Assembly: GCA_040218145.1 (NCBI GenBank)
Contig: JAVJQK010000104.1
Span: forward strand, 186,001 to 250,000
Origin: Sandaracinaceae bacterium
GTDB taxonomy: Bacteria; Myxococcota_A; Polyangia; Polyangiales; Sandaracinaceae
Direction of reading: 5' to 3'
DNA: 64,000 nucleotides
Below the pieces are notes generated by a model. That model saw only the letters and a program-made list of their open reading frames with translations, was not told the origin of the DNA and ran no database searches. Made by a program: the position numbers and the translations under genes. Shown here piece by piece: positions 5,696 through 35,568 of this stretch; the first letter of the stretch is position 1, and each line of letters starts with the position of its first letter.

Positions 5696-7710
5696 GGCAG
5701 CAATTCGCGTGGCTCCTGGCTCTGCTGCTCGCGTCCGGCTGCAGCCTCGTGCGCCCGCCCGATCGCGACCTGATCCCGCGCGACGCCGAGGCCGGCGTGA
5801 TGGACGCGGGCGACGCAGGCCCCGACGCGAGCGACGCGGGAGACGCGGGAGACGCGGGAGACGGCGGCGGCTGCCCGATGCGGGAGCGCCGCGAGACCTC
5901 GTGCGACAACGGCGAGGACGACGACTGCGATGGCGTCATCGACTGCCTCGACTACGACTGCCGCGGCATCGTCGAGTGCTGCGTCGAGTCGAGCTCCACG
6001 ACGGTCTGCCTCGACGGCGACGCCGACCCGACCCAGCGCTTCAACAACCTCACCGGCGTGGGCATGGCCGACGGCTGCAGCGCGACCGAGCGGCTCGTGG
6101 ACTTCAGCGGCGCGTACGGCGCGATCGTCACGGAGAGCTGCCAGCCGATCACCTTCGGCATGCGCTTCACGGCGCAGTTCGAGATCGTGACCCCCTGCCC
6201 GTCCGGGCCGTGCAGCGATCAGTACGCGGCGCTCGCGTTCGGGCCCACGGGGACCCTGCTCTCGGGCCGGTACGACAGCGAGCTGCGCTTCGTCATCGGC
6301 GCCGACCGGACGGCGCGCCTCGAGCGCGCGGGGAGCCCCCTCGGGACGACCCTCTCCAACCTGCCCACGGGCGCGACGATCACGCTGACGGTGGAGCTGC
6401 AGCCGGGGCCGAGCGAGCTGGGGCGCGACGTGCTCTACCTGCTCGCCGACGTGGCCTGGGACGGCGGCGGCGGACGCCTCGTCGATCGCGACACCCCGAT
6501 CCTGCCGCTGGACGACATCCGCTGTCAGGTCGCCGGGCGCTCGCAACCCGGGCTCTACGCGGCCATCGAGGGCAAGGGCACCAACGCGGTCGAGGTGCTC
6601 GGGCCCATCGCCCGGGTCGAGCGCGCGTGCGCGAACCCGAGTCAGTTCGAGCGCTTCGGCGCGCCGCCCGACCTCACCGCGGTCGAGGCGTGCGCGCCCG
6701 GCAACGTCGGCGCCCCCGCCCTCGCTGGCTACTGCTACGAGGACTGCTCCGGCAGCGCGAGCTTCCAGTGGGACCTCTGGGTGGACGGAAGCGACCGCCC
6801 GCGCGAGGACGACGCGGCGGCCTTCATCGACTTCGGGGTGTGCGGCGCGCGCGCGCAGACGCCCGGCTTCCCCGGCACCGGGGCGATCGACTGGGAGGGG
6901 CGAGGCGCGGGCACCCTGCTCGGCGCGATGATGAGCTCCGCGCGCGAGCCTACGCTCCTGCCCGACTACGACGACGGCGCGGGGACCCGGGTGGAGACGC
7001 TCGGCTACGCCTACGCGTGGCGCACGACGATGGGCTCCGACGTGCACGAGATCCGCGGAGGCGAGCTCCTCAGGAATCCGGGCGCGGTGCCGGGGCCGGG
7101 CACGCTCCTCGTCTCACCGAGCACGGCGACCGGCTGCGCGTCGGTGCGCGAGCCGCTCCTGCTCGCGAACCTCGCCGAGGCCACCTCGGGGCACCGCGTG
7201 GACGGAGGCTGGCTGGTCTTCACCTGCGACCGCGGCCTGTCCGGAGACACGCTCGGGGTGGTGGCGGTCGACGACTCCTTCGGCGCGCCGATGGGCGCGG
7301 TGCAGACCGACTTCTTGACGGGCGCGATCGGGCCCTACGCGAGCCGCGGGGTGTTCGGCGCCGCGGGGTATACGGAGGCGAACGGCGCGGAGCTCACCCT
7401 GCGCCTCTGGTTCCTGGCGCGCGACGGCGCGGGAGAGGTCACGCTCGCGTACGCCCAGGGCCGCGGCCCGCTCGGCGCGCTCCCCCCGCTCGAGGTCTAC
7501 CCCGCCAACCCCATCCTCCGCGGTGACTCGCAGGATCTGGGTGGGTCCTGCGACGGCGCCTGCCGCCTGACGGGCGTGAGCGTGATCGCCGACCCCAACG
7601 CGCCGGCCCGCGGCGGGGACAACGTCTTCGTGGTCGCCCGCTCCCGGATGACCTCGACCGACTTGCTCCACGAGCTGGTCCCGTTGTTGCAACCTCGACC
7701 CTTCGACTGA
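5692..7710 (+). CDS. Large lipoprotein with Asp/Cys MopE-like motif
   Basis: A 672-residue lipoprotein (lipobox LASGC, Cys17). A low-complexity Asp-Ala-Gly linker built from 9-bp DNA repeats leads into a Cys/Asp motif (CDNGEDDDCDGVIDC, then ECC) resembling the metal-binding repeats of MopE-type proteins. A beta-rich region with scattered cysteines follows. The C-terminal half looks like a lectin/propeller-type fold. It shares the domain order of the next three genes but is the most divergent of the four. ATG 5692 overlaps the previous stop (ATGA) and has a G-rich ribosome-binding site. Function unknown; cell-surface location is expected. Confidence 0.85.
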   Translation: MRQQFAWLLALLLASGCSLVRPPDRDLIPRDAEAGVMDAGDAGPDASDAGDAGDAGDGGGCPMRERRETSCDNGEDDDCDGVIDCLDYDCRGIVECCVESSSTTVCLDGDADPTQRFNNLTGVGMADGCSATERLVDFSGAYGAIVTESCQPITFGMRFTAQFEIVTPCPSGPCSDQYAALAFGPTGTLLSGRYDSELRFVIGADRTARLERAGSPLGTTLSNLPTGATITLTVELQPGPSELGRDVLYLLADVAWDGGGGRLVDRDTPILPLDDIRCQVAGRSQPGLYAAIEGKGTNAVEVLGPIARVERACANPSQFERFGAPPDLTAVEACAPGNVGAPALAGYCYEDCSGSASFQWDLWVDGSDRPREDDAAAFIDFGVCGARAQTPGFPGTGAIDWEGRGAGTLLGAMMSSAREPTLLPDYDDGAGTRVETLGYAYAWRTTMGSDVHEIRGGELLRNPGAVPGPGTLLVSPSTATGCASVREPLLLANLAEATSGHRVDGGWLVFTCDRGLSGDTLGVVAVDDSFGAPMGAVQTDFLTGAIGPYASRGVFGAAGYTEANGAELTLRLWFLARDGAGEVTLAYAQGRGPLGALPPLEVYPANPILRGDSQDLGGSCDGACRLTGVSVIADPNAPARGGDNVFVVARSRMTSTDLLHELVPLLQPRPFD

Positions 7711-9482
7711 TGCGACTGGCACGCTACGGCACGCCCCTCTCGGGCCACTCCGGCTTCACGCGGGGCTCCCTCCTCGCGTTCGCGGGGTGGCTCGTGCTGG
7801 CGTTCGCGAGCTGCGCGGACGCCGGCGCGCCGGACGGATTCGTCACCGACGGCGGCGCCACGGCCTTCGACGGGAGCCCGGTCTCCCCACCCAACGACCG
7901 CGAGGATCCCGACTTCGACGCCGGGGCCTGCTTCGATGGGCTCGACAACGACGCCGACGGAACGCTCGACTGCGCCGAAGCCGAGTGCGGGGTGCGCGCG
8001 GAGTGCTGCGTGGGCTCGGCCGAGTGCTGCAGCGGCGCGACCCGCCTGAGCACCCTGACCGTGGAGTGCGAGGACGGCCCCGCCTCCGCCTGCGACTCGC
8101 TCGAGGGCCTGACGCTCTTCGGCGCCCCGACGATCGAGCGGACCGGCCTCGTCCCCCAGGGCGGCGCGGGGCACGGCGGCGTGGTGATGCATCCGTCCGT
8201 CGACCCGCGGGCTGGCAACCTCCGGGTGCAGGCGCGCATCGAGGCCCCCACCACGCCGTGCGCCGAGTGCGTCGACCTGGCCGGCATCGCGCTGGTCGAG
8301 GCCGCCCCCGCGCCGGGCGCGCGCGCCGTCGTCTGGCTCGGCGTCGTCGCGGTGAGCTCTCGCGGCGAGGCGCAGGTGGTCGCCAGCGACGAGGTGGTGG
8401 CGACGTTCTCGCTGATGGCGGCGGCGGAGTACGAGATCGAGCTGCGCGCGGACGGCGTCGCGACGGTGTCCGTGGGGTCCGAGTCGGTCGCGCTGACCGA
8501 GCTCGAGCTGCCCCCCTCGATCCAGGTGATCGCCTACGGCCGCACCCAGAACCGCGGCGCGGGCGTGGACGCGGCGCGGCTGCGCGGCGGCGAGGTGTTC
8601 TTCGAGGCCTGCGACATGCCGGCCGCGCTCGAGCGCGACCCGACGCCGCGCCTGCCCACCGTGGCCTCCGGCTTCACGCCGCGCGCCCTCGGGCGGGCCA
8701 CCGCGCTGATGGTGGAGGACCGTCTCCTCACCGTCTTCGCCGACGACGGAGACCTCTATCAGGCGATGGAGACCCGCAGCGGCGACCTGGCGGGACCCGC
8801 CGACCGCAACGACCGCGCGGTCGTCCCGCCGGAGGGGATCGACGACCTGTTCGACCCCGCGCTGGTGGTCGAGGACGGCGCCGTGACGCTCTACTTCGCG
8901 GGCGAGCACGTGAGCGGAGTCCGGCGCATCTTCCGCAGCCGGCGCGAGGGCGACACCTTCGCCGCTCCAGAGGACGTGCTCGCGGTCGACGGAGGCTCGG
9001 TCGACGGCCCGACCGTCTTCAAGAGCCCCGCTGGCCCGTGGCGCATGATCGCCCGGGTCCGGCGCGGCGCGCAGACCTCGCTCGAGCAGTTCGAGGCCAT
9101 CGGCGGCGACACCGGCGCCTGGCGCCCGCTCTCGGTGGTGCGCGCCCCGGCTGCCGCCGACCTGTTCGCGTTCGATCGCGACGACGTCGCCCAGCCCGCC
9201 GTCGTGCGCAGCGCCGACGGGCTCTACCGCCTCTACTACGCGGGGCAGCGAGGCACGGGCTGGTCCATCGGGCTGCTCGTCTCCCAGGATGGGGACGCGT
9301 GGCGGCCGCTCGGCGCCGTGCTCACCCCGGACGGCGAAGGCTTCGACGCGCTCCAGGTACGCGGGCCCGCCCCCGTGCTCCGGACCGACCGCGCCAACGC
9401 GCTGCACCTCTACTACACGGCCAGCGACGGCGTCTCGTCCGCGATTGGCCTCGCTGGACCGGCTGGCACGCTCGGTGAATGA
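7710..9482 (+). CDS. MopE-motif/beta-propeller-like lipoprotein, paralogue A
   Basis: A 590-residue lipoprotein with a hydrophobic leader ending in FASC (Cys35). Next comes CFDGLDNDADGTLDC and a Cys cluster (ECCVGSAECC), then a concanavalin-like beta region ending ... IQVIAYGRTQNR. The last 250 residues contain repeats such as GLYRLYYAGQRGTGWSIGLL and LHLYYTASDG, which resemble blades of five-bladed glycosidase-type propellers. The order is the same as in the two following genes. The start ATG overlaps the upstream stop by one base (TGATG), so translation is coupled. No catalytic residues can be assigned. Confidence 0.85.
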   Translation: MRLARYGTPLSGHSGFTRGSLLAFAGWLVLAFASCADAGAPDGFVTDGGATAFDGSPVSPPNDREDPDFDAGACFDGLDNDADGTLDCAEAECGVRAECCVGSAECCSGATRLSTLTVECEDGPASACDSLEGLTLFGAPTIERTGLVPQGGAGHGGVVMHPSVDPRAGNLRVQARIEAPTTPCAECVDLAGIALVEAAPAPGARAVVWLGVVAVSSRGEAQVVASDEVVATFSLMAAAEYEIELRADGVATVSVGSESVALTELELPPSIQVIAYGRTQNRGAGVDAARLRGGEVFFEACDMPAALERDPTPRLPTVASGFTPRALGRATALMVEDRLLTVFADDGDLYQAMETRSGDLAGPADRNDRAVVPPEGIDDLFDPALVVEDGAVTLYFAGEHVSGVRRIFRSRREGDTFAAPEDVLAVDGGSVDGPTVFKSPAGPWRMIARVRRGAQTSLEQFEAIGGDTGAWRPLSVVRAPAAADLFAFDRDDVAQPAVVRSADGLYRLYYAGQRGTGWSIGLLVSQDGDAWRPLGAVLTPDGEGFDALQVRGPAPVLRTDRANALHLYYTASDGVSSAIGLAGPAGTLGE

Positions 9483-9506
9483 TGTCTTCACGGTGGGTCT
9501 ACCGTG

Positions 9507-11342
9507 ATGAATCGTGTGCCAAGCTGTGATCGAAGCGCCTGGATCGGGCGGATCTGCACGGTCCTCGCGCTCCTCGCGCTGAGCGCCTGCGATGGTTCGA
9601 GCGCGGCAGGACGCTGCGCCGGCGACCCCGGGTGCTTGTACGGAGACGCGGACTCCGGCGCGGAGCCGCCCGTCACCGGGGGCGACGCGGGCCTGGTCCC
9701 CGACGTCGACGCGTCCCCGCCCGGCCCGAACGACGAGAGCGGCTTCAGCGCCGACGCCTGCTTCAACGGCCTGGACGACGACGGCCTGGCCGGCGGCGAG
9801 ACCGACGGCGCCTTCGACTGCGACGACGCGAGCTGCGGCAGCGCCGCCATCTGCTGCCTGGGAGAGACCCACGAGGCCTGCTGCGTCCCCGCGGCCGGCT
9901 TCTCGATCGAGCTCGCCGCGTGCGGAGATCCCACGGACTGCGCGCGCGGCGGCGGCGTCTTCGGCGCCCCCTACCTGACGGCGGACGGCCTCGTGCCCAA
10001 CGGCGACGGCGTGGCCGACGGCGGGCTGGTGGTCGGAGACGCGCTCGACCCCACCCGCGACCGCCTGACCTTGCGTGCCACCCTTCGCGCAGACGCCGAC
10101 TGCGAAGGCGACTGCGTGGAGGTGGCGGCCTTCGGGCTCGGCGACGCGCCGGACCGCGAGTCGATGCGCATCACCCCGGACGTGGGCATCTCGCTCCGAC
10201 CCGCGCGGCGCGAGATCGCGCTGGTGGTGGCGGGCGAGACCCTGCACGCGTGGCGGTACGACGGGCCGGCGGACGTGGCGGCCACCCTCGTGCTCGCGCC
10301 CGACGGTCACCTCGACGCGAGCGTGATGGGCGTCCCGGGCGCGGAGCCGGTGAGCGCCACCTACACGCCGCGCGCCGATCGTCGCCTCGTGATCTACGGC
10401 CGCACGGAGAACAGCGCCGCGCGCGCGCCCGCCCGCGTGGTGAGCGTGACCGTCGAAGAGATGCGGTGTCGGGTCCCGAGCGCGCTCGACCGCCCGCTCG
10501 CGCCGCAGGTCCCTTGGGGGGAGCCCTGGACGACCGAGGCGCCGCGCGCGCCGAGCGTGCTCGCGGACGAAGACACCTTGCACGTCGCGTTCGAGATCGA
10601 CGGGGACATCTTCCTCGCGGACCGCGGCCCGGAGGGTGCTTGGCGTCTGCGCGGCAGCGACCTCGACGATCCCGTGCTGCGCGCGCCCGACGGCGAGCGC
10701 TACGCCGATCCCGAGCTCGTGCGGACCACCTCGGGGCACTTCCTGTTGCTGACGCACGAGGTCGACGGCCGCGACACGATCGCCGTCTCGCGGGTCGACG
10801 ACTTCGCGGCCGCGGTCCACTTCCCGGACCCGCGCCCCTTGGCGGTGGACGGCGTGGCAGACGCGAGCCTCCGAGCGCCGAGCGCGCTGGTCACGACCGA
10901 GGGCGTCTGGGTCGCGGCGGTCGGGGGACGGGGGGAGCAGAGCGCAATCTCGCTCTTCCTCGCCGACGCCGCCCTGACGAGCCTCGAGCGACGCGTCGAG
11001 CAGCCGGTGCTCACCGCGAGCGGTGATCTCTTCCGCTTCGATGGCCAGGAGGTCGGCGACCCCGAGCTGGTGCGGGACGGCGACGGGCTCGTCCGCCTCT
11101 ACTACGCGGGCCGCCGCGGCACGCGCTGGGCGATCGGCCTCTACGTCACCGCCAACGGCGAGCTCTGGCGCGAGGTGGGCGATGGCTCTCCCCTCCTCGA
11201 GGCGGCCGGCTTCGGCTTCGACGGCCTCAGCGTCCGCGGGCCCGACGCGCGCTGGCGCGAGACGGACGGCGTGATGGAGCTCTGGTACGGCGCGACGGAC
11301 GGCGCGCGGCGCGCCCTCGCGTTCGCCGAGGAGTCCCGATGA
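9507..11342 (+). CDS. MopE-motif/beta-propeller-like lipoprotein, paralogue B
   Basis: A 611-residue paralogue of its neighbours. Leader with lipobox LSAC (Cys28), motif CFNGLDDDGLAGGETDG with a short insertion relative to paralogue A, Cys cluster ICCLGETHEACC, then the beta region ending LVIYGRTENS. The C-terminal repeats read GLVRLYYAGRRGTRWAIGLY and MELWYGATDG. Start ATG 9507 (GTG 9504 is possible) lies 24 nt after the previous stop, the only real gap in this run. Likely an outer-surface protein; substrate unknown. Confidence 0.85.
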   Translation: MNRVPSCDRSAWIGRICTVLALLALSACDGSSAAGRCAGDPGCLYGDADSGAEPPVTGGDAGLVPDVDASPPGPNDESGFSADACFNGLDDDGLAGGETDGAFDCDDASCGSAAICCLGETHEACCVPAAGFSIELAACGDPTDCARGGGVFGAPYLTADGLVPNGDGVADGGLVVGDALDPTRDRLTLRATLRADADCEGDCVEVAAFGLGDAPDRESMRITPDVGISLRPARREIALVVAGETLHAWRYDGPADVAATLVLAPDGHLDASVMGVPGAEPVSATYTPRADRRLVIYGRTENSAARAPARVVSVTVEEMRCRVPSALDRPLAPQVPWGEPWTTEAPRAPSVLADEDTLHVAFEIDGDIFLADRGPEGAWRLRGSDLDDPVLRAPDGERYADPELVRTTSGHFLLLTHEVDGRDTIAVSRVDDFAAAVHFPDPRPLAVDGVADASLRAPSALVTTEGVWVAAVGGRGEQSAISLFLADAALTSLERRVEQPVLTASGDLFRFDGQEVGDPELVRDGDGLVRLYYAGRRGTRWAIGLYVTANGELWREVGDGSPLLEAAGFGFDGLSVRGPDARWRETDGVMELWYGATDGARRALAFAEESR

Positions 11343-13195
11343 GCGCCGGGCGCGGAGGGCGGGGATACGGATGGAAGGCGGCGTGCGCGCTGCTCATGAT
11401 CCTGCCCGCCTGCAGCGCCAGGATCTCCTCCGACGACCAGGACGCCGGCCGTTCCGACGCGGGGGCGGCGTTCGCCGACGCGGCCGGCCCGTCCCTGGAC
11501 GCCGCCACGCAGTCGCCCGACGCGAGCCTGGCCGACGGCGGCCCCGGGACCATGGGAGCGGCCGAGTTCGACCCCTCGCGCGGCGGCATCGCCGCCTGCT
11601 TCGACGGCGCCGACAACGACGAGGGCGGCGGCGGCGCGGACTGCGCGGACACGAGCTGCCAGGCGAACGTGCCGGCGTGCTGCGTGGGCGTCAGCAGCTC
11701 GACCTGCTGCGACGCGGGCGTCCCGCGCGATCTCCCGTTCGGCACGTGTGGCGGAGGCGTCGCCGGGTGTCCCGCGCTCGCCGGCTTCGACGTGTTCGGC
11801 GCGCCCTCCCCCCGCGTCGACGACAGCGGCGCAGAGACCGTCTTCCTCCCCGGCGGGGAGGGCTCGGAGAGCGGCGTCCTGTTCCCCGAGCCGCTCGACC
11901 CGCGCCTCGGCACGATCACCCTGACCGCGCGCGTCGCGACGCCCGAGCCCCCGCCGAGCGGTGGCCAGATCGAGCTCGTCGGCTTCGGGCTCGTCGACGC
12001 CGAGATCGACCCGGGCGGGCTCGGACGGGTGGCGCCGATCGCCGGCCTCCGCGTGAGCCGCAACCGGCGCGAGGTCACGCTCGTCGTCGCGGGCGAGACC
12101 GTGTTCCGCGCCGCGATCACGACCGAGGGCTTCGTGGACTACGGCCTGACGCTCTCGCCCACGGGGCGGGTGGCGCTGCTCCGGGACGGCGCGGAGCTCG
12201 CCGCGCTCGAGCTCGGCCCCGGCCTCGCGCTGCGCGCCGCGCTCTACGGGCGCACGTCCAACGAGCCGGGCTCGGGCGACGTCGGGCTCAACACCCGCGT
12301 CGCCTCGGCGTCCGTGTCCCAGCAGCGCTGCGACATGCCGGGCGCGCTCGCGCTTCGCCCCACCCCGGCCCTCGGCGGCGCGGCGTGGGCGGACGACTTC
12401 GACGCCATCGGCGAGCCCGACATGCTCCGCTGGACGTTCGAGGAGACGACGCGCGCGACCCTGGCCTTCATGCTCGGCGACTCCATCTACCTGGCCGAGC
12501 CGGGCCCGGGTGGGCTCGCGCCGACGACCGCCCTCGACGCGCCCGTGCTCACCGAGGGCCTCGTCGACTTCGCCATGACCGCCGTCTCCTCGCCCGCCCT
12601 GCGCCACGACGGGGCCGGGGAGCTCGAGATCTGGTTCGTGGGCGAGACCGGAGGCCAGACCACGATCGGCGTCGCGCGTCGACGCGCGAGCGACGGCCTC
12701 TACCGTGACTTCACGCGCCAGCTCAGCGCGGCGGCGGGGGAGCGCTTCGAGAGCGTCGACGTCTACGACACGAACGACGAGACGCGGCTGGCGGTCGCGG
12801 TGCGGGCTCCCGACGGCAAGACGCGGATCGAGATTCACCGCGTGGGCGCAGGCGCCGTCGGCGTGGTCCGCGAGAGCCGGCCGGACACCCTCTTCGCGTT
12901 CGACCGCGACGAGGTCGGCGACCCCTCGATCGACATCGAAGGCGGCGTGTACCGGCTCTACTTCGCCGGACGGCGCGGCACCCGCTGGTCGATCGGCCTG
13001 CTCGTGTCGGCCGACGGCGCTGTCTTCGTCGAGCCGAACGATCCGATCGCGCTCGAGCCGTCGGGGCTCGGGTTCGACGCGCTCTCCGTGCGCGGCCCGA
13101 GCGCCGAGGTCTTCGAAGACGAGCTGCACCTCTACTACGAGGGCAGCGACGGCGCGCGCTCCCGGATCGGCGTCGCGATCGGCGCAGCTCCCTGA
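11339..13195 (+). CDS. MopE-motif/beta-propeller-like lipoprotein, paralogue C
   Basis: A 618-residue paralogue. Lipobox LPAC (Cys25), Asp/Ala-rich linker, CFDGADNDEGGGGADC with Cys cluster ACCVGVSSSTCC, beta region ending ALYGRTSNE, and C-terminal repeats VYRLYFAGRRGTRWSIGLL and LHLYYEGSDG. The ATG overlaps the previous stop (ATGA). It is the last gene of the coupled run headed by kinase 1. The three paralogues are collinear over their full length but diverged, so the duplications are old. Confidence 0.85.
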   Translation: MSAGRGGRGYGWKAACALLMILPACSARISSDDQDAGRSDAGAAFADAAGPSLDAATQSPDASLADGGPGTMGAAEFDPSRGGIAACFDGADNDEGGGGADCADTSCQANVPACCVGVSSSTCCDAGVPRDLPFGTCGGGVAGCPALAGFDVFGAPSPRVDDSGAETVFLPGGEGSESGVLFPEPLDPRLGTITLTARVATPEPPPSGGQIELVGFGLVDAEIDPGGLGRVAPIAGLRVSRNRREVTLVVAGETVFRAAITTEGFVDYGLTLSPTGRVALLRDGAELAALELGPGLALRAALYGRTSNEPGSGDVGLNTRVASASVSQQRCDMPGALALRPTPALGGAAWADDFDAIGEPDMLRWTFEETTRATLAFMLGDSIYLAEPGPGGLAPTTALDAPVLTEGLVDFAMTAVSSPALRHDGAGELEIWFVGETGGQTTIGVARRRASDGLYRDFTRQLSAAAGERFESVDVYDTNDETRLAVAVRAPDGKTRIEIHRVGAGAVGVVRESRPDTLFAFDRDEVGDPSIDIEGGVYRLYFAGRRGTRWSIGLLVSADGAVFVEPNDPIALEPSGLGFDALSVRGPSAEVFEDELHLYYEGSDGARSRIGVAIGAAP

Positions 13196-13225: not shown

Positions 13226-14167
13226 GTGGCACGCGCCGAGACGAAGGTGGACGAGACGATGGCGGGGCAGACCCTCGCCGCGGTGGTGCGGGCTCTGCTG
13301 GACGTGCCCTGGAGCAAGGCCAAGCGGCTCTGCACGAGCGGCCGCGTCTTCCTCGACGGCGACGTGTGCACCGACCTGGCGCGGCGCGTGAAGGCGGGCG
13401 CGAAGGTCGCCGTGGACGAGGCGGCGCCCAAAAAGCGCCTCGGCGTGCTCGACCGTGACGCGATCCTCCACTCCGACGCGGACGTCGTCGTGGTGCGCAA
13501 GGACGCGGGCCTGCTCACGCTGCCCTTCCACGGCGACGAGAAGGACACCCTGGTGGACCAGACGCGGGCCGCGCTCGCGCGCATGCTCCCGCGGCGCGCC
13601 AAGGGCCGCGACCCGATGGTCGGGGTCGTCCAGCGCCTCGACAAGGACACGACCGGTGTGCTGGTCTTCGCGCGGAACATGGTGGCCAAGCGCGCGCTCC
13701 AGGACCAGCTCCGCGCGCACACCGTCGGGCGGCGCTACCTCGCGCTCGCGCACGGCGCGGTGAAGACCGAGAGCCACGAGAGCGACATCGTGCAGGACCG
13801 CGGCGACGGCCTGCGCGGGAGCTGGGGGACGCGATCGAACCACCGCGGCGCGCCGCCTCCCAACGCGAAGCGCTCCGTCACCCACGTGCGCCTCGTCGAG
13901 CCGCTGCGAAAGGCGTCGCTCGTCGAGTGCCGGCTCGAGACCGGGCGGCAGCATCAGATCCGCATCCACCTCGCCGAGGCCGGCCACCCGCTCGTGGGAG
14001 AGCGCGTCTACATCCGCGACTTCTCCGCGCCGCAGATCTCCGCGCCGCGCCCGATGCTGCACGCGACGGAGCTGGCGTTCGAGCACCCGCGCACGGGGGA
14101 GCGCCTGCGCTTCTCGGTGCCGCTGCCCGCGGACTTCGAGGCGGCGCTGGCGCGTCTCCGCGGTTGA
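13226..14167 (+). CDS. RluA-family pseudouridine synthase
   Basis: A 313-residue RNA-modifying enzyme that converts uridine to pseudouridine in rRNA or tRNA. An S4-like N-terminal part (SKAKRLCTSGRVFLDG) precedes the catalytic domain with GVVQRLDKDTTGVLVFARN; the Asp in RLDKDT is the expected nucleophile. Later family motifs are present: GRRYLALAHG, and the RLETGRQHQIRIHLAEAGHPLVG block. The target base cannot be predicted. GTG 13226 is the only sensible start. It probably begins the transcription unit that continues into the HTTM module. Confidence 0.92.
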   Translation: MARAETKVDETMAGQTLAAVVRALLDVPWSKAKRLCTSGRVFLDGDVCTDLARRVKAGAKVAVDEAAPKKRLGVLDRDAILHSDADVVVVRKDAGLLTLPFHGDEKDTLVDQTRAALARMLPRRAKGRDPMVGVVQRLDKDTTGVLVFARNMVAKRALQDQLRAHTVGRRYLALAHGAVKTESHESDIVQDRGDGLRGSWGTRSNHRGAPPPNAKRSVTHVRLVEPLRKASLVECRLETGRQHQIRIHLAEAGHPLVGERVYIRDFSAPQISAPRPMLHATELAFEHPRTGERLRFSVPLPADFEAALARLRG

Positions 14168-14201: not shown

Positions 14202-14849
14202 ATGAGTGAACCGAAGAGCCAAGCGAACGGCCTGTCCACGCGGGTCGCTCAGGCCAGCGCGGCGGTCGTGGCGGTGGGCGCCCTCCTGCTCACGTTCGAC
14301 GTGACGGCCCAGGAGCAGCGCGGCTGGGGCTGGCTGATCCTGGTCGCAGGCGTGCTCGGCCTGCTCGTCGCGGGCGTGATGCGGGGCGCGGAGGACGCCG
14401 CCACGGTGAAGGCGCCGCTCGTCGCCGACGCGCCGAAGGGCAAGGCCGCCACCTGGCTCGGCGTCGCCTTCGGGGTCGGCGTGCTCGTCCAGGCCGTCAT
14501 CCCCTTGCGCTACTACTTCGGCGACGACGCCTACGACGAGCGCTTCGCGTGGCGCATGTTCTCGAACGTGCGCGTCTATCGCTGCGACCTCGGCGCGTTC
14601 GAGACGCGCGACGGATACGAGCGGCCGGTGAACCTGATGGAGACCATCCACGTGGGCTGGGGCAGCCTCCTGCGGCGCAACCGGGAGCCGGTCATGGACG
14701 CCTGGCTCGAGTGGCGGTGCGAGCAAGAGGGGGTGAGCGCGGCGCGCCTGCTGAACCGCTGCGTCTCACCCGCGGGAGAGAGAGCGCCCGACGTCCGGCG
14801 CGCCATCGACTGCGAGCGCGGTGAGATCACCGAAGGGGGGGAGGAATGA
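14202..14849 (+). CDS. HTTM-module partner protein (carboxylase C-domain-like), copy 1
   Basis: A 215-residue membrane protein with three predicted helices (about 18-38, 42-60, 85-104) and a soluble C-terminal domain. Directly after helix 3 comes QAVIPLRYYF (97-106) and RFAWRMF (114-120). This resembles the motif that follows the membrane domain in vitamin K-dependent gamma-carboxylases, where a Q..(I/L)P segment is followed by a (S/A)W.MM-type strand. The stop overlaps the start of the HTTM gene (ATGA), indicating coupled expression. A similar small protein precedes the second HTTM gene at 35146-35568. The interpretation as a detached carboxylase domain is inference. Confidence 0.6.
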   Translation: MSEPKSQANGLSTRVAQASAAVVAVGALLLTFDVTAQEQRGWGWLILVAGVLGLLVAGVMRGAEDAATVKAPLVADAPKGKAATWLGVAFGVGVLVQAVIPLRYYFGDDAYDERFAWRMFSNVRVYRCDLGAFETRDGYERPVNLMETIHVGWGSLLRRNREPVMDAWLEWRCEQEGVSAARLLNRCVSPAGERAPDVRRAIDCERGEITEGGEE

Positions 14850-16480
14850 GCCTGCTGTCGCGCACGCTCTACGTCCCGGTCGCCGCGGTGCGTCCCTACC
14901 TCGCGCTGAAGTGCACCCTCGTGCTCCTCGCCTTCGACGTGTGGATCGCGCGCCTCTACAAGGGGCACGGCCACGGCGCGGGCGGCTTCAACGTCGCGCA
15001 CTTCGAATTGCTCGACGCGGTGCAGCCGTCGATCAGCGCTCCGCTCTTCGTGGGCGTGATCATCCTGACCGGCGCGCTCTGCCTGACGATCGCGATCGCC
15101 TCTCGTCCGCCGCGCTGGCTCATCGGTCTCGCCTTCGTGCTCCACACGTGGAGCTGGGCGATGAGCATGCTGGACAGCTACCAGCATCACTACCTGCTCT
15201 CCATCGTGCTGCTCGCGCTCGTCTTCTTCCCGCGGCTGACGGCCGAGGACGCGCTGCTGCCTCCGTCTTCTCCGAAGAAGCGCGACGCGCCGAGCACCGC
15301 GGCGGAGCGGCGCAAGGGCAAGAAGAAGAAGCGGAAGAAGAGCGCCGACGAGCCGGCCGCCCAGCCCTCGATCCTGTCGCCCGCGTCGCTGACGAGCGCC
15401 GGGGGCTACGCGTTCCTCGCCGCGAGCATCGCCGTCGTCTACGCCTACACCGCGCTCAGCAAGACCGACCCGGAGTGGCTCTCGGGCGCGGCGCTGAAGA
15501 GCGTGCTCCACCTCCAGGAGAACGGGATGCCCGCGCCGGGGCGCGAGGACCCGATCGGGTTCTTCCGCGACCTCGCGGCCAGCTTCGGCCTGGCCGGCGA
15601 GACCTTCTGGTGGTTCATGGGCCACTCGGTGGTCGGCGTGCAGCTCGTCTGCGCGCTCGGGTACCTGCTGGCGCCGTTCCGCGACGTGACGCGCGCAAAG
15701 TGGATGGCTGGGCTCGGCTGGCTCGCGCTGTTCACCGCGCTGAGCTTCCACGTCGGCGCGGAGTACATGGACCTGAAGATCGGCTGGTTCAGCTGGTACA
15801 TGATCGGCTACGCGCTGATCTTCTTCCTCCCCGGTCGCTGGCTCGTCGTCGCGGCGCGCGGGCTGGTGCCCCTGGTCGGCACCTCCCTGGGCCCGCAGGT
15901 CATCGCCGCGCGGATCCTCGTCGCGCTCGTCGCGCTCGTCGTCGGCTTCGCCGTCCTGCCCGTCATCGGCTGGCTCGGCGTCGGGCTGCTGCTGCTGACG
16001 CCGCTCCGCCTGCTGGCGAAGGCGGCCTGGACGCGCGAAGCGGAGGCGCAGGCCGAGCAGACCCATCACGTCGCGCTCGGCGCCGCCGGCCTCGGCGCCG
16101 CGATCCTCGTCGGGGCGGGCTACGTGGCCGACCTGCCCGGCGCGCCCGCGGCCGTGATCGCGGGCGCCGTCCTGCTGGGCGGGGGCGTGATCGGGCTCCT
16201 CGTGTCGAAGGGCCACGCGCGGGCGATCCACGGCTACGGCGTCGGCGCCGCGGTCGCGGGCCTCGCGCTCGTCGCGTCCATGTCTCTCTCGGAGGCGCGG
16301 TGGGACTTCTACCGCAACTACGGCGGCAACCACCGCCGCCTCGGCGAGTGGGCCGTCGCCTACCACGCCTACCAGAAGGCGGTGAGGTACGCGCCCGACG
16401 ACGAAGCGGCCGAGAGCCGCCAGCGACGCGTCGACGAGATGCGCGCCAACATCGAGCGCGACGGCCCGAGGCGCCCGTGA
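14846..16480 (+). CDS. HTTM-domain membrane protein (gamma-carboxylase-like), copy 1
   Basis: A 544-residue polytopic membrane protein of the HTTM (horizontally transferred transmembrane) superfamily, related to vitamin K-dependent gamma-glutamyl carboxylase. Two features match the enzyme family: a His pair before a helix (SYQHHYLL, His114/115), and SKTDPEWLSG with Lys206, in the context of the catalytic-base Lys of human GGCX (KKLDADW). A strongly basic cytoplasmic loop (about 153-167) and a short helical, TPR-like tail are extra. The large luminal domain of GGCX is missing here and may be supplied by the upstream partner. HutF-like gene follows with a GTGA overlap. Confidence 0.75.
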   Translation: MSLLSRTLYVPVAAVRPYLALKCTLVLLAFDVWIARLYKGHGHGAGGFNVAHFELLDAVQPSISAPLFVGVIILTGALCLTIAIASRPPRWLIGLAFVLHTWSWAMSMLDSYQHHYLLSIVLLALVFFPRLTAEDALLPPSSPKKRDAPSTAAERRKGKKKKRKKSADEPAAQPSILSPASLTSAGGYAFLAASIAVVYAYTALSKTDPEWLSGAALKSVLHLQENGMPAPGREDPIGFFRDLAASFGLAGETFWWFMGHSVVGVQLVCALGYLLAPFRDVTRAKWMAGLGWLALFTALSFHVGAEYMDLKIGWFSWYMIGYALIFFLPGRWLVVAARGLVPLVGTSLGPQVIAARILVALVALVVGFAVLPVIGWLGVGLLLLTPLRLLAKAAWTREAEAQAEQTHHVALGAAGLGAAILVGAGYVADLPGAPAAVIAGAVLLGGGVIGLLVSKGHARAIHGYGVGAAVAGLALVASMSLSEARWDFYRNYGGNHRRLGEWAVAYHAYQKAVRYAPDDEAAESRQRRVDEMRANIERDGPRRP

Positions 16481-17697
16481 TCCGGCTCAACGGAGACGCC
16501 CTCTCTCTGCCCGGGCTCGCCACCGCGCACTCCCACGCCTTCCAGCGCGCGCTCCGCGGACGCACCCACCGGCCTCTCGCTCCGAGTCGCGGCGGCGCCT
16601 CGTTCTGGAGCTGGCGCGGGCTCATGTACGAGCTCGCGGCCAAGCTCGACCCGGACACGATCTACGCCCTGTCGCGCTACGCCTACGTCGAGCTGGCCAT
16701 GAGCGGGGTGACGGCGGTGGGCGAGTTCCACTACGTGCATCATCAGCCCGACGGCGAGCCGTACGGCGACCGCACCGCGCTCGCGGACGCGGTCGTGCGC
16801 GCCGCGATCGACGCCGGCCTCCGCGTCTGCCTGCTGCGTGTCCTCTACCAGCGCCCGGGGCTGGGCCGCGCGCTCGAGCCGACCCAGCGACGCTTCTCCG
16901 ACGCCGACGTCGACGACGCCCTCCGCGACGTCGAGACCCTGCGCGCCCGCTGGGCGGCGGAGCCCCGGGTCCGCGTCGGCGTCGCCCCCCACAGCGTCCG
17001 CGCCGTCCCTCTCGAGGGCGTCCGCGCCGGGGCGGCCTTCGCCGAAGAACACAGATTGCCATTCCACATGCACGTCAGCGAGCAGCGCCGCGAGGTCCGC
17101 GAGTGCCTGGCCGAGCACGGGCGCCGGCCCGTCCAGCTCCTCGCCGACGAGGGCGTGCTCACCGACCGCTTCGTGGGCGTGCACGCCACCCACCTCGACG
17201 CCCGCGAGATCGCGGCGCTCGGCGCCTCCCGCGCGTTCGCGTGCGTGTGCCGCACGACCGAGCGCGACCTCGGCGACGGCCTCCCCTCGCTGACGCCCAT
17301 GCTCGCCGCGGGCGCGCGCCTCTGCTTCGGCACCGACAGCCACGCCATCAGCGACCCCTTCGAGGAGGCGCGCGCGGCCGAGCTCGACGAGCGCTCCCGC
17401 CTCGAGCGGCGCGCCCTCGTCGACGCCGGCGCGCTGCTCGGCGCGGCGAGCGCCGAGGGCTACGCCGCGATCGGTATGGCCGGCCTCGAGACCGAGGACC
17501 GCGTCACGCTCGACGGCCCCGAGCTCGCGGGCGCGGCGCCGCCCTACGAAGACGCCGTGGTCTTCGCCGCCAACGCCCGCTGCGTGCGCACGGTCGAGGT
17601 CGCCGGCGCGCGCATCGTGGAGGACGGTGTGCACCGCGACTACGCGGAGGCGCGCGCGGACTACGAGCGCGCCGTACGCGGGCTGATCGACGGCTGA
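16477..17697 (+). CDS. hutF: HutF-like amidohydrolase (formimidoylglutamate deiminase family)
   Basis: A 406-residue metal-dependent hydrolase. Metal and substrate motifs are clear: LPGLATAHSHAFQRAL (HxH, residues 18-20), FWSWRGLMYELA, FHMHVSEQ, VHATHLD and FGTDSH. HutF deiminates N-formimidoyl-glutamate in histidine breakdown. The N-terminal beta-sandwich found in most relatives is almost absent: only about 13 residues precede the LPG strand. No other hut gene is nearby, so another substrate is possible. The start GTG overlaps the HTTM stop (GTGA). Confidence 0.8.
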   Translation: MIRLNGDALSLPGLATAHSHAFQRALRGRTHRPLAPSRGGASFWSWRGLMYELAAKLDPDTIYALSRYAYVELAMSGVTAVGEFHYVHHQPDGEPYGDRTALADAVVRAAIDAGLRVCLLRVLYQRPGLGRALEPTQRRFSDADVDDALRDVETLRARWAAEPRVRVGVAPHSVRAVPLEGVRAGAAFAEEHRLPFHMHVSEQRREVRECLAEHGRRPVQLLADEGVLTDRFVGVHATHLDAREIAALGASRAFACVCRTTERDLGDGLPSLTPMLAAGARLCFGTDSHAISDPFEEARAAELDERSRLERRALVDAGALLGAASAEGYAAIGMAGLETEDRVTLDGPELAGAAPPYEDAVVFAANARCVRTVEVAGARIVEDGVHRDYAEARADYERAVRGLIDG

Positions 17698-33000: not shown

Positions 33001-34305
33001 ATGACCAAGCACGTCGCGATCGTCGGGAGTGGCCCGGCGGGGTTCTACGCCGCCGAGGCCATCTGCAAGAAGGAGCCGGAGGTTCGGGTCGACATCCTCG
33101 ACCGTCTCCCCACTCCCTACGGGCTCGTTCGGAGCGGCGTCGCCCCCGACCATCAGGGCACGAAGAACGTCTGGCGCGTCTTCCACCGCACCGCGCAGCG
33201 CGAGCAGGTGCAGTACGTGGGCAACGTCGAGGTGGGCCGCGACGTCGGCGTGCCGGAGCTGCTGGAGCTCTACGACGCGGTCGTGCTCGCGGTGGGCGTG
33301 ACCGACGACCGCAAGCTCGGCATCGAGGGCGAGGACCTGCCCGGGGTCTACGGCTCGCGCGCGCTGACCGCCTGGTACAACGGCCACCCCGACTTCGCCG
33401 ACCTGGACCCCGACCTGCGTGGTCCCGGCATCGCGGTGATCGGCAACGGCAACGTCGCGGTCGACGTGGTGCGCGTGCTCGGCCGCACCCGGCCGGAGAT
33501 GGTCAAGACCGACCTGCCCGACTACGCGATGAAGAAGATCGAGGCGTCGGACTACACCGACATCTACATGCTCGGGCGGCGCGGCCCGCTGCAGGCCAGC
33601 TTCACCACCGCGGAGCTGCGTGAGCTGGGCGACATGAGCCAGACCGTGGCCGTGGTGCAGAAGGAGCAGCTCCCGGGCGAGTTCACGGTCGACGATCCGA
33701 AGCAGCAGCGGCTCTTCGAGAAGATCGTCGACACGCTCCGCGGCTACTCGGAGAACGACCCGACCAGCAAGCCCAAGCGGCTGCACATGCGCTGGTTCGC
33801 CTCGCCGGTGCGCGTGCTCGGCGAAGACCGGGTCACCGGGCTCGAGGTGGCGGTGACGAAGATCGACGAGGACGGCCGCGCGGTGAAGACCGGCGAGACC
33901 TACGTGATCGAGGTGGGCACGGTCGTGACGGCCATCGGCTACGTCGCGACGCCGCTCGAGGGCGTGCCGGTCGCGAAGTGGGGCACCTGCTTCAAGAACG
34001 AGGACGGCAAGATCGCCGACCGCCTCTACGCGGTGGGTTGGGCCAAGCGCGGCCCGAGCGGCGTCATCGCCACCAACCGCAAGGACAGCGGCGAGGTCGC
34101 GCACGTGATGCTCGACCAGCTCGAGGACGGCGGGCGCGCCGGGCACGAGGGCCTGCTGAAGCTCCTCGCGCAGCGCGACGTCGCCGCCACGAGCTACGAC
34201 GATTGGGTCCGCATCGACGCGCGAGAGACGGCCGACCTCCCCGAGGGCACGCCGCGCCGGAAGATCACGTCGATGCCGGATCTGCTGAGCGCGACGAAGT
34301 CCTGA
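33001..34305 (+). CDS. fprA: Ferredoxin/adrenodoxin-type NADP reductase
   Basis: A 434-residue FAD enzyme of the FprA/adrenodoxin reductase family that moves electrons between NADPH and ferredoxin. FAD-binding GSGPAGFYAAE (10-20), the PTPYGLVRSGVAPDH block, NADP-binding GNGNVAVDVVRVL and the late GWAKRGPSGVIATNRKDS motif are all typical. Length is normal for the family. Its 3' end overlaps the HTTM copy 2 gene by 41 bp (convergent). Confidence 0.93.
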   Translation: MTKHVAIVGSGPAGFYAAEAICKKEPEVRVDILDRLPTPYGLVRSGVAPDHQGTKNVWRVFHRTAQREQVQYVGNVEVGRDVGVPELLELYDAVVLAVGVTDDRKLGIEGEDLPGVYGSRALTAWYNGHPDFADLDPDLRGPGIAVIGNGNVAVDVVRVLGRTRPEMVKTDLPDYAMKKIEASDYTDIYMLGRRGPLQASFTTAELRELGDMSQTVAVVQKEQLPGEFTVDDPKQQRLFEKIVDTLRGYSENDPTSKPKRLHMRWFASPVRVLGEDRVTGLEVAVTKIDEDGRAVKTGETYVIEVGTVVTAIGYVATPLEGVPVAKWGTCFKNEDGKIADRLYAVGWAKRGPSGVIATNRKDSGEVAHVMLDQLEDGGRAGHEGLLKLLAQRDVAATSYDDWVRIDARETADLPEGTPRRKITSMPDLLSATKS

Positions 34306-35149
34306 AGAGCCGTCGCTCCCACGGCAGGAAGGTCACCAGGAAGAGCGCCATCGAGGCGCCGAACGTGCTGACCATCGTCGTCGTGTCGAGCACGACGTGC
34401 AGGGCGAGGCCCAGCGCCACGCCGAGGAGCCGCGTCTTTCGCCACGCCAGCAGCGGCACCAGCGCGAGCTCCCAGAGCGCGATCGCGGTCGCCATGCCCG
34501 CGTGGCCGACGAGCCCGAGGCCCGCGTCCCAGAAGACCCCCTCGAACGGGAAGCGCTCCGCGATCAGCCGGAGAGAGGTGCCATCGAGCCAGCGCGGGTC
34601 GAGCTTGGCGAGGCCGGCCGCGCCGTAGATCACCAGGGCCTGGAGGCGCCAGAGCGTCAGCGGCCAGCGCGGCGCCGAGGGATCGCCGCGCCGGATCACG
34701 GCGAGCCTCGCGTCGCACGGCGTCAGCGCGACGAGCGCGCAGCTGAGCCAGAGCAGGTGCAGGTGGTGGAAATACCGCGCCGCGTCGAGCGCCATGAGCC
34801 CGTAGCCCGCGATCGCGAGGAGCAGCGCCGCGGGGCGCGCGCGGATCCCGAGCAGCACCAGCCCCGCGAGCGGCAGCCGCGCCCACGCGAGGGCGGCGGC
34901 GACGAGCCCGTGCGGCGACGGAAGCCCCGGGACGAGCGGCATCTCGAGCCAGGGCGTCTCCGCGGGATCGGCGCCCGGGGCGTGGTCGAGGCCCGAGACC
35001 CAGGCGTGGTGATCGAGCTGCAGAAACGGGGCGGTCCAATCCGAGACGCGCAGCAAGACGAGGGTCGCGACGCCGACGCGCAAGATGGCGTAGACGAGCG
35101 GGTCCACCTCGCCCGCCCAGAGCGCGTCCCAGCGCGCCCGCACGCTCAC
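34265..35149 (-). CDS. HTTM-domain membrane protein (gamma-carboxylase-like), copy 2
   Basis: A 294-residue polytopic membrane protein of the HTTM superfamily. Like copy 1 it has the His pair before a helix (RYFHHLHLLWL, His128/129) and the Lys context GLAKLDPRWLDG (Lys182), which closely matches GGCX (KKLDADWVEG). It contains only the membrane domain and ends shortly after, so no soluble carboxylase domain is attached. GTG 35149 overlaps the stop of the small partner gene (GTGA). Third gene of a coupled unit beginning with a TSP3 lipoprotein. Confidence 0.78.
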   Translation of the reverse strand: MSVRARWDALWAGEVDPLVYAILRVGVATLVLLRVSDWTAPFLQLDHHAWVSGLDHAPGADPAETPWLEMPLVPGLPSPHGLVAAALAWARLPLAGLVLLGIRARPAALLLAIAGYGLMALDAARYFHHLHLLWLSCALVALTPCDARLAVIRRGDPSAPRWPLTLWRLQALVIYGAAGLAKLDPRWLDGTSLRLIAERFPFEGVFWDAGLGLVGHAGMATAIALWELALVPLLAWRKTRLLGVALGLALHVVLDTTTMVSTFGASMALFLVTFLPWERRLFRTSSRSADPAST

Positions 35150-35568
35150 TCGCACGCGCGCTCCAGGCTCCGATCGTCGAGCGGCGCGCCCGCGCCGTCC
35201 TGGAACTCGATCCGCACGTGCACGCGCGCGCGGCGCGGGTCCTGTCGGCACGCCAGCTCGGCCAGCGCCTCGAGCCGGCCCGCGACGAGGCGCGCCTGGG
35301 TCTCTCCGAGCCGGAAGGCGTCGCTCCCCCCGAGCACCCGGCGGGCGTCGCGCGTCGCGTGCGGGAGCAGCGCGCGGACGGGCAGCTGATAGGCCGTTCC
35401 ATCGCGCCGCTCCTCGAAGAGCGTGAGCCGATAGCGGACCGGCTCGGTGAACATGCGGAAGCCCCCGACGGGGGTGACCTCCAGCGCCGCGAGCGCGGGC
35501 AGGAGGAGCATGGCCAGCACGGCCGCGAGCAGCGCCGCGTCGGGCGGGCGGCGCCGCTCGGGCGTCAT
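35146..35568 (-). CDS. HTTM-module partner protein (carboxylase C-domain-like), copy 2
   Basis: A 140-residue protein with one N-terminal membrane helix (about 11-30), then GGFRMF (35-40) and a beta-rich domain (YRLTLFEERRDG, VHVRIEFQDG). The position and RMF motif match copy 1 (RFAWRMF), and the sequence order (WxMM-like strand, DG turn, Cys-containing helix, I/V-x-I strand) recalls the luminal domain of GGCX. Overall identity to copy 1 is low. ATG 35568 sits on the upstream stop (TGATG). Proposed as the separately encoded extracytoplasmic part of a carboxylase-like enzyme; this is inference. Confidence 0.55.
   Translation of the reverse strand: MTPERRRPPDAALLAAVLAMLLLPALAALEVTPVGGFRMFTEPVRYRLTLFEERRDGTAYQLPVRALLPHATRDARRVLGGSDAFRLGETQARLVAGRLEALAELACRQDPRRARVHVRIEFQDGAGAPLDDRSLERACE

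What the first reader, a model, noticed from the sequence alone, without database searches (positions are those of the whole stretch)
14202..16480. Split gamma-carboxylase-like module: HTTM membrane protein plus a separately encoded C-domain-like partner
The HTTM protein keeps a His pair (His114/115) and Lys206 in SKTDPEW, the same context as the catalytic-base Lys of human GGCX (KKLDADW), but lacks the soluble domain. The gene directly upstream, overlapping by ATGA, encodes a membrane protein whose helix 3 runs into QAVIPLRYYF...RFAWRMF, similar to the segment that follows the membrane domain in GGCX-type proteins. One enzyme may have been split into two subunits.
Basis: partly seen in the sequence, partly recalled or inferred. 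Interest (0 to 1): 0.85.

Follow-up and report, generated by a model that had tools for sequence, protein, structure and literature searches.

The report
Carboxylase-like enzyme split into two genes
Two overlapping bacterial genes encode the two complementary halves of an enzyme related to the human vitamin K-dependent (blood-clotting) carboxylase, and a survey suggests that related bacterial enzymes generally carry this second half, either fused to the first or as the gene next door.

Summary
P2 (14846-16480, 544 aa) is a divergent HTTM protein: its family profile hits human GGCX at E=1e-22, with His114, Lys206 and His302 aligned to GGCX His160, Lys218 (catalytic base) and His287, and its model matches GGCX at Z 19.8. 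P1 (14202-14849, 215 aa; ATGA overlap) has the next piece of GGCX: TM9, the membrane-embedded linker and the lumenal PBD-2 lobe. The best nine structural matches of P1 are all GGCX, residues 353-505 (Z 7.2); 32 of 59 P1 relatives match Pfam VKGC_lumenal_dom. The pair is conserved: P2 lies beside P1 in 57 of 58 independent loci, and 3.4 kb away in the other. Of 53 other HTTM hits lacking the canonical lumenal domain, 40 have a small upstream TM+soluble partner with a (W/F)x(M/L)(F/Y)-type linker and 11 carry such a module fused C-terminally. SdpA/SdpB has the same layout. Best reading: an obligate two-subunit, quinol-dependent carboxylase-like modification enzyme. Complex formation, chemistry and substrate are untested. 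New variant of a known kind.

The parts
14202..14849 (+). P1, partner subunit (215 aa): two lineage-specific N-terminal TM helices (10-30, 41-60), then TM helix 81-106 (GGCX TM9-like), linker DERFAWRMFS (112-121) and a soluble alpha/beta domain with four conserved Cys (C128, C173, C187, C204), GGCX PBD-2-like
   Evidence: AF2, soluble part pLDDT 93-98; GGCX 353-505, Z 7.2; 32/59 relatives hit PF22777
14846..16480 (+). P2, catalytic subunit (544 aa): HTTM membrane domain (about 8-335) with H114, K206, H302; C-terminal extension with further helices of membrane length and a TPR-like end (484-539)
   Evidence: GGCX E=1.1e-22; AF2 pLDDT 84.9, pTM 0.84; GGCX Z 19.8, 267 aligned; 54/56 relatives hit HTTM
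14846..14849 (+). ATGA overlap: start of P2 and stop of P1, suggesting translational coupling
15185..15190 (+). codons of H114-H115; H114 aligns with GGCX His160
   Evidence: invariant in 56 relatives
15461..15463 (+). codon of K206, aligns with GGCX Lys218, the base that deprotonates vitamin K hydroquinone
   Evidence: role of Lys218 from PMC12589487
15749..15751 (+). codon of H302, aligns with GGCX His287
14535..14564 (+). linker motif DERFAWRMFS of P1, aligns with the GGCX TMD-PBD linker (W399, M401, M402) that lines the vitamin K pocket
   Evidence: invariance in A2 partly by construction, because the scan used DERFAWRM
35146..35568 (-). pair B partner (140 aa): N-terminal TM, then GGFRMFTEP and a soluble domain; a second split module of the same layout
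   Evidence: no Pfam match of its own
34265..35251 (-). pair B HTTM protein without lumenal domain; the listed ORF uses an upstream GTG, so the true start may lie further in
   Evidence: PF05090 E=1.7e-16

Best explanation
P1 and P2 are the two obligate subunits of one GGCX-type membrane enzyme. P2 supplies the eight-helix HTTM bundle with the catalytic base (K206) and the two histidines, and binds reduced quinone (menaquinol is likely). P1 supplies in trans what GGCX carries in cis after that bundle: the ninth helix, the membrane-embedded linker that closes the quinone and Glu pockets, and the PBD-2 lobe on the outer face of the membrane. The soluble domain of P1, possibly together with the C-terminal TPR-like end of P2, would present an exported substrate protein, which is modified by quinol-oxygenation-driven carbanion chemistry, most simply Glu gamma-carboxylation. 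Shown here: homology, fold, conserved catalytic residues, conserved gene pairing. Inferred: complex formation, topology, quinol use, carboxylation, substrate. The stated confidence is for one two-subunit GGCX-type enzyme; I put about 0.45 on the product being gamma-carboxyglutamate.
For: Catalytic half: the A4 profile hits human GGCX at E=1.1e-22 with H114=H160, K206=K218, H302=H287. Q113, H114, H115, K206 and H302 are invariant in 56 P2 relatives gathered through P1, so not selected on P2. The P2 model matches GGCX at Z 19.8 over 267 residues, all 16 top rows GGCX. Partner half: P1 model residues 76-215 match GGCX 353-505, Z 7.2, 129 aligned, rows 1-9 all GGCX, next unrelated row Z 5.6. PF22777 VKGC_lumenal_dom is the only widely recurring Pfam hit, 32 of 59 members, best E 2.8e-5. 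hhalign against the lumenal domain of fused proteins E=1.4e-9, soluble part alone 1.1e-4 against a shuffle minimum of 0.039. The two halves cover complementary stretches of GGCX (about 48-340 and 353-505). In GGCX the linker aligned with P1's motif contributes Y395, S398, M401, M402 to the vitamin K and Glu pockets (PMC12589487). Linkage: P2 adjacent downstream of P1 in 57 of 58 loci, 3.4 kb away in the other. Rule: of 41 sampled HTTM hits without PF22777, 33 have an upstream TM+soluble partner and 6 of the other 8 carry such a module at the C-terminus; cis and trans modules are homologous, hhalign E=2.7e-10, best shuffle 0.054; fused HTTM-VKGC genes lack an upstream partner (1 spurious call in 32). 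Three genomes of one genus that lost the K206 region in P2 also changed the P1 linker. The genome encodes two VKOR-family proteins.
Against: No complex could be predicted and no interaction is shown. The P1 match to GGCX is of middling Z (7.2), and Foldseek alone found no significant match. Much of the P1-lumenal profile score comes from the TM segment (shuffles that keep the TM still reach E 3e-7 to 6e-6). The 8-residue identity of the linker in alignment A2 is partly by construction. P1 has no equivalent of the propeptide-binding lobe PBD-1. In P2 the GGCX residue N159 is Gln, so the substrate or chemistry may differ. No substrate and no recurrent third gene were found. The gene order P1-P2 is the reverse of the GGCX domain order.
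Confidence: 0.8

Rival explanations
1. The two proteins do form one complex, but it is not a carboxylase: the HTTM fold with its Lys/His is used for another quinol- or lipid-linked reaction on exported proteins, for example toxin or peptide maturation as by SdpA/SdpB.
For: SdpA/SdpB are required for processing of SdpC to the SDP toxin (PMC6818787), and an HTTM protein occurs in linaridin clusters with unknown mechanism (PMC9927463). Two-gene layout and TM-PQGWKFF motif in SdpA. N159 of GGCX is Gln in P2.
Against: The base Lys218, His160 and His287 equivalents are all kept, which favours the same first chemical step.
Confidence: 0.35
2. P1 is an independent membrane protein in the same operon (chaperone, regulator or substrate of P2) and its likeness to the GGCX lumenal domain is superficial.
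For: Middling structural Z, no VKGC Pfam match for P1 itself, a large part of the profile score from a TM helix.
Against: 32 of 59 relatives hit VKGC_lumenal_dom and no other family recurs in more than four; the nine best structural rows are all GGCX and cover TM plus soluble domain collinearly; soluble-only profile signal; comparable modules occur fused to HTTM in other genomes.
Confidence: 0.08
3. Inactive remnant: the pair is a decaying copy of the two intact fused HTTM-VKGC enzymes of the same genome (L001, L002).
For: The genome has two intact fused enzymes, and one genus shows loss of the Lys region in P2.
Against: The catalytic residues are invariant in 56 P2 relatives, conserved pairing in 58 loci from several groups, long open frames without stops.
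Confidence: 0.03

Closest known systems
[quoted passage not shown]
   Same: HTTM bundle with Lys218/His160/His287 equivalents; TM9, linker and PBD-2 equivalents; together P1 and P2 cover GGCX about 48-505.
   Different: Two genes in reversed order; no PBD-1 or arch domain; four conserved Cys in P1; a C-terminal helical and TPR-like extension on P2; N159 replaced by Gln; no known substrate.
SdpA/SdpB of Bacillus subtilis (PF17418 / TIGR04033) and YitP/YitO
   Same: Small upstream TM protein with a QGWxFF motif overlapping an HTTM gene (locus L119/L236); both proteins required for toxin maturation (PMC6818787).
   Different: Sequence link between SdpA and the GGCX-type module is only suggestive (hhalign E 0.0017 to 0.0036); no toxin gene like sdpC was recognised beside P1/P2; NCBIfam gives no SdpB call for P2.
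HTTM proteins in linaridin RiPP clusters (CrdG)
   Same: HTTM protein in a secreted-peptide modification setting (PMC9927463).
   Different: Not compared by sequence here; a partner gene was not examined.

Membership tests
HTTM domain (PF05090) | Profile match over the curated cut-off | tested here: inconclusive
   P2 itself 24.6 bits against a cut-off of 27.7, E=2.3e-5; 54 of 56 relatives match at E<=0.01, best 1.5e-26; family hhalign E=1.1e-23 over 250 columns
HTTM domain (PF05090) | Fold of the GGCX membrane domain | tested here: met
   Z 19.8, 267 residues, GGCX in all 16 top rows
HTTM domain (PF05090) | Catalytic residues His160, Lys218, His287 of GGCX | tested here: met
   H114, K206, H302 aligned and invariant in 56 sequences
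VKGC lumenal domain (PF22777) | Profile match over the curated cut-off | tested here: not met
   P1 itself has no match; 32 of 59 relatives match at E<=10, best 2.8e-5, and whole-genome hits of P1 relatives stay below the cut-off
VKGC lumenal domain (PF22777) | Fold and position: TM9 helix, linker, PBD-2 | tested here: met
   P1 76-215 on GGCX 353-505, Z 7.2, rows 1-9
VKGC lumenal domain (PF22777) | Covalently joined after the HTTM domain | tested here: not met
   Separate gene in all 58 loci
Vitamin K-dependent gamma-carboxylase (function) | Carboxylates Glu using reduced vitamin K | not testable with these tools
   No substrate or activity data
SdpA/SdpB | PF17418 (SdpA) or TIGR04033 (SdpB) match | tested here: not met
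   No NCBIfam hit for P1 or P2; no PF17418 hit in the window's genome even at E<=10
SdpA/SdpB | Two-gene layout: small TM partner upstream, overlapping an HTTM gene | tested here: met

The most novel reading that the evidence does not exclude
Every HTTM-family enzyme needs a second module (TM helix, a linker of the (W/F)x(M/L)(F/Y) type, small extracytoplasmic alpha/beta domain) that completes the quinol and substrate pockets, and this module moves freely between cis (GGCX, fused tails) and trans (an overlapping upstream gene). SdpA/SdpB would then be a split carboxylase-type enzyme, and bacteria would hold a large, unrecognised set of two-subunit GGCX-like protein-modifying enzymes.
Probability: 0.5. 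Interest if true: 0.88.

Novelty: new variant of a known kind. Interest (0 to 1): 0.76.

Why it matters
GGCX is the only human enzyme that makes gamma-carboxyglutamate, and what its many bacterial HTTM relatives do is largely unknown, since most appear to lack half of the enzyme. If the missing half is the neighbouring gene, these proteins become testable two-subunit enzymes, annotation of HTTM-only genes and their unannotated neighbours changes, and the roles of SdpA and SdpB in toxin maturation get a concrete mechanistic hypothesis. A natural split also gives a way to study how the lumenal domain and linker control catalysis.

Tried and rejected
Direct hmmscan of P1 found no VKGC or SdpA match, and a profile search of PDB sequences with P1 found only chance hits; the link appeared only with family-wide scans and structure. 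Foldseek alone gave no significant match for P1. A strict regular expression for the linker found only 13 of 41 partners and was replaced by a TM+soluble-tail criterion plus reading of the sequences. Of the 34 automatic calls, two (L194b, L221) were discarded as unrelated genes; L199, missed by the criterion, was added; and L224 was kept on its correct partner, giving 33. Recurrent neighbour genes as substrates: only lineage synteny (Lhr-like helicase, endonuclease III-like, HutF-like), no common substrate. The partner of pair B is not in plasmid records. hhalign of several other trans partner types against the lumenal domain, with only 2 to 6 sequences each, was not significant for most, so homology of all partner types is not claimed. 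SdpA against these profiles was only suggestive. No open paper describing a split HTTM enzyme was found, but the library holds only open-licence papers; the primary SdpA/SdpB paper was not held.

Full report
WHAT IS THERE. Two genes overlap by ATGA: P1 (14202-14849, 215 aa) and P2 (14846-16480, 544 aa). Upstream is an RluA-type pseudouridine synthase (13226-14167) and downstream an amidohydrolase of HutF type (16477-17697), which give no functional hint. The window lies in an 11-Mb genome (G000, contig C104); the closest named record is a Sandaracinaceae MAG (99% identity over P1).

P2 IS A GGCX-TYPE MEMBRANE DOMAIN. P2 alone is just below Pfam's HTTM cut-off (24.6 against 27.7 bits), but 54 of 56 relatives match HTTM, best E 1.5e-26, and the family profile aligns with the HTTM domain of fused bacterial enzymes over 250 columns at E 1.1e-23. 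A profile of the HTTM part finds human GGCX at E 1.1e-22. In that alignment H114 falls on His160, K206 on Lys218 and H302 on His287. Lys218 is the base that deprotonates vitamin K hydroquinone and His160 helps bind the Glu (PMC12589487). Q113, H114, H115, K206 and H302 are invariant in all 56 P2 sequences, which were collected through P1 and so were not selected for these residues. The AlphaFold2 model (pLDDT 84.9, pTM 0.84) matches GGCX at Z 19.8 with rmsd 3.1 over 267 residues; the first 16 rows are GGCX entries. Beyond the HTTM part P2 has more helices of membrane length and a TPR-like end at 484-539. By helix counting this end would be outside the cytoplasm, which is an inference.

P1 IS THE NEXT PIECE OF GGCX. 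P1 has a TM helix (81-106), the motif DERFAWRMFS and a soluble alpha/beta domain predicted at pLDDT 93-98. In the longer family most members have only this one TM helix; the two extra N-terminal helices are specific to the window's lineage. The model, compared with solved structures, gives GGCX in rows 1-9 (Z 7.2 for the best, rmsd 4.3, 129 residues; P1 76-215 on GGCX 353-505), and the first unrelated chain has Z 5.6. The Z value alone is middling; the weight lies in nine of nine rows being the same protein and in the collinear cover of TM and domain. Scanning the 59 relatives against Pfam, 32 match VKGC_lumenal_dom (best 2.8e-5), and no other family recurs in more than four. Whole-genome search with that Pfam model independently rings on P1 relatives in ten or so genomes, always near model positions 3-76. 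Profile-profile comparison gives E 1.4e-9 for the whole and 1.1e-4 for the soluble part alone, against a minimum of 0.039 in 40 column shuffles. The TM helix carries much of the score, since shuffles that keep it reach 3e-7 to 6e-6.

WHY THE LINKER MATTERS. In human GGCX the linker between TM9 and the lumenal domain is embedded in the membrane and contributes Y395, S398, M401 and M402 to the wall between the vitamin K and Glu pockets (PMC12589487). Aligning W117 of P1 with W399 puts M119 on M401 and F120 on M402 (numbering from the sequence around M401/M402 given in that paper, with the human sequence from my own knowledge). So P1 would complete the active site of P2 in trans. The complete invariance of D112-M119 in alignment A2 is partly by construction, because the collection scan used the pattern DERFAWRM; in the unbiased search of 144 genomes the motif is DERFAWRMFS in most, DERFAWRLFS in one and DDRFTWRTF or TL in three. 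Those three genomes, one genus, are also the ones whose P2 lost the K206 region: the two genes decayed together once.

THE PAIR IS CONSERVED. In 144 class genomes P2 relatives occur in 22, and each of these also has a P1 relative; the two further P1 hits are a patatin-like false hit (G075, named from the sequence) and a contig where P2 breaks off (G109). In a scan of public genomes 58 P1 loci were found, mainly Myxococcota with some Planctomycetota and one Bdellovibrionales and one Bradymonadaceae record. All 58 have a P2 on the same strand downstream; 57 adjacent, one 3.4 kb away (L137). Four Cys of P1 are conserved; one relative lacks exactly C173 and C204, which suggests the pairs C173-C204 and C128-C187 (inference).

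IT IS A GENERAL RULE, NOT ONE SPLIT. In the window's own genome each HTTM protein without the canonical lumenal domain has a small TM+soluble gene directly upstream: pair A, window pair B (35568-35146 and 35251-34265, minus strand), and those on C101, C44 and C82. Of 41 HTTM hits lacking PF22777 taken from other class genomes, 33 have such a partner upstream; of the eight that do not, six carry a C-terminal tail of about 190 residues or more with a TM and a linker-like motif (QGWTMFSPEP, YPTF, QNWSMFAPEP, EHWGMFVK, QGWKMFAAN, RGWRLFTN), and two remain unassigned. Tails after the HTTM hit have a median of 34 residues in the 33 and 192 in the eight. As a control, 32 loci with fused HTTM-VKGC genes gave one spurious upstream call. 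Eight further HTTM proteins reached through six genomes, three of them Planctomycetota, all fit: five cis, three trans. With the four other proteins of the own genome this is 53 cases outside the P2 family: 40 trans, 11 cis, 2 open. The cis tails and one group of trans partners are homologous around the linker (E 2.7e-10, best of 30 shuffles 0.054). Homology of every partner type is not shown; several groups are too small. Assignment involved reading sequences by eye, so the counts carry some judgement.

RELATION TO SdpA/SdpB. SdpA and SdpB are both needed to make the SDP toxin (PMC6818787), and SdpB belongs to the HTTM group. In locus L119/L236 the SdpA gene precedes and overlaps the SdpB gene and encodes a TM followed by PQGWKFFTRDP. 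Profile comparison aligns this motif with the cis and trans linkers in register, but only at E 0.0017 to 0.0036. I regard a common origin as likely and unproven.

HOW IT MOST LIKELY WORKS. Shown: homology of both halves to complementary parts of GGCX, conserved catalytic residues, conserved pairing. Inferred: P1 and P2 assemble; menaquinol binds in P2 behind the P1 linker; K206 deprotonates it; oxygenation generates the strong base that takes a proton from an exported protein held by P1 and perhaps by the TPR end of P2; CO2 adds to give Gla, or another product forms. The genome has two VKOR-family proteins, compatible with but not evidence for quinone recycling. The genome also has two intact fused HTTM-VKGC enzymes, so the pair is an additional enzyme and not a broken copy.

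SUBSTRATE. No third gene recurs. In eight loci, including the window's close relative, large paralogous lipoproteins like those at 7710-13195 lie upstream, and in L137 one ends 12 bases before P1. They are candidate substrates only.

VERDICT. The observation and the main interpretation stand. The wider finding, an HTTM-completing module that is encoded in cis or in trans, is the more important result. New variant of a known kind.

Noticed in passing
34265-35568 (- strand): A second two-gene HTTM module in the same window: a 140-aa TM+soluble protein (GGFRMFTEP) overlapping an HTTM gene.
   Followed up: partly
7710-13195 (+): Three tandem paralogous secreted lipoprotein-like ORFs without Pfam match (checked for the middle one); relatives lie upstream of the pair in 8 of 58 loci, directly adjacent to P1 in L137. 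Candidate substrates.
   Followed up: partly
L002:2312-3550 (-) and about 20 of 32 fused HTTM-VKGC loci: Fused HTTM-VKGC genes lie directly downstream of a gene whose product is imelysin-like (Peptidase_M75 E=3.3e-30 for L002) and ends in an acidic DND/NDGD tail; a possible substrate of the fused enzymes.
   Followed up: partly
L064, L065, L069 (genomes G022, G031, G132): In one genus P2 is shortened and lacks the Lys206 region while P1 has a changed linker (DDRFTWRTF/TL): joint decay or a changed function.
   Followed up: partly
14846-16480, residues 484-539 of P2: TPR-like C-terminal end, present as TPR hits in about half of the relatives, some with long TPR arrays; probably extracytoplasmic by helix count.
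   Followed up: no
L194 (G083:C272): Two HTTM genes in tandem, with only the second clearly preceded by a partner gene; the first has no assigned partner.
   Followed up: no
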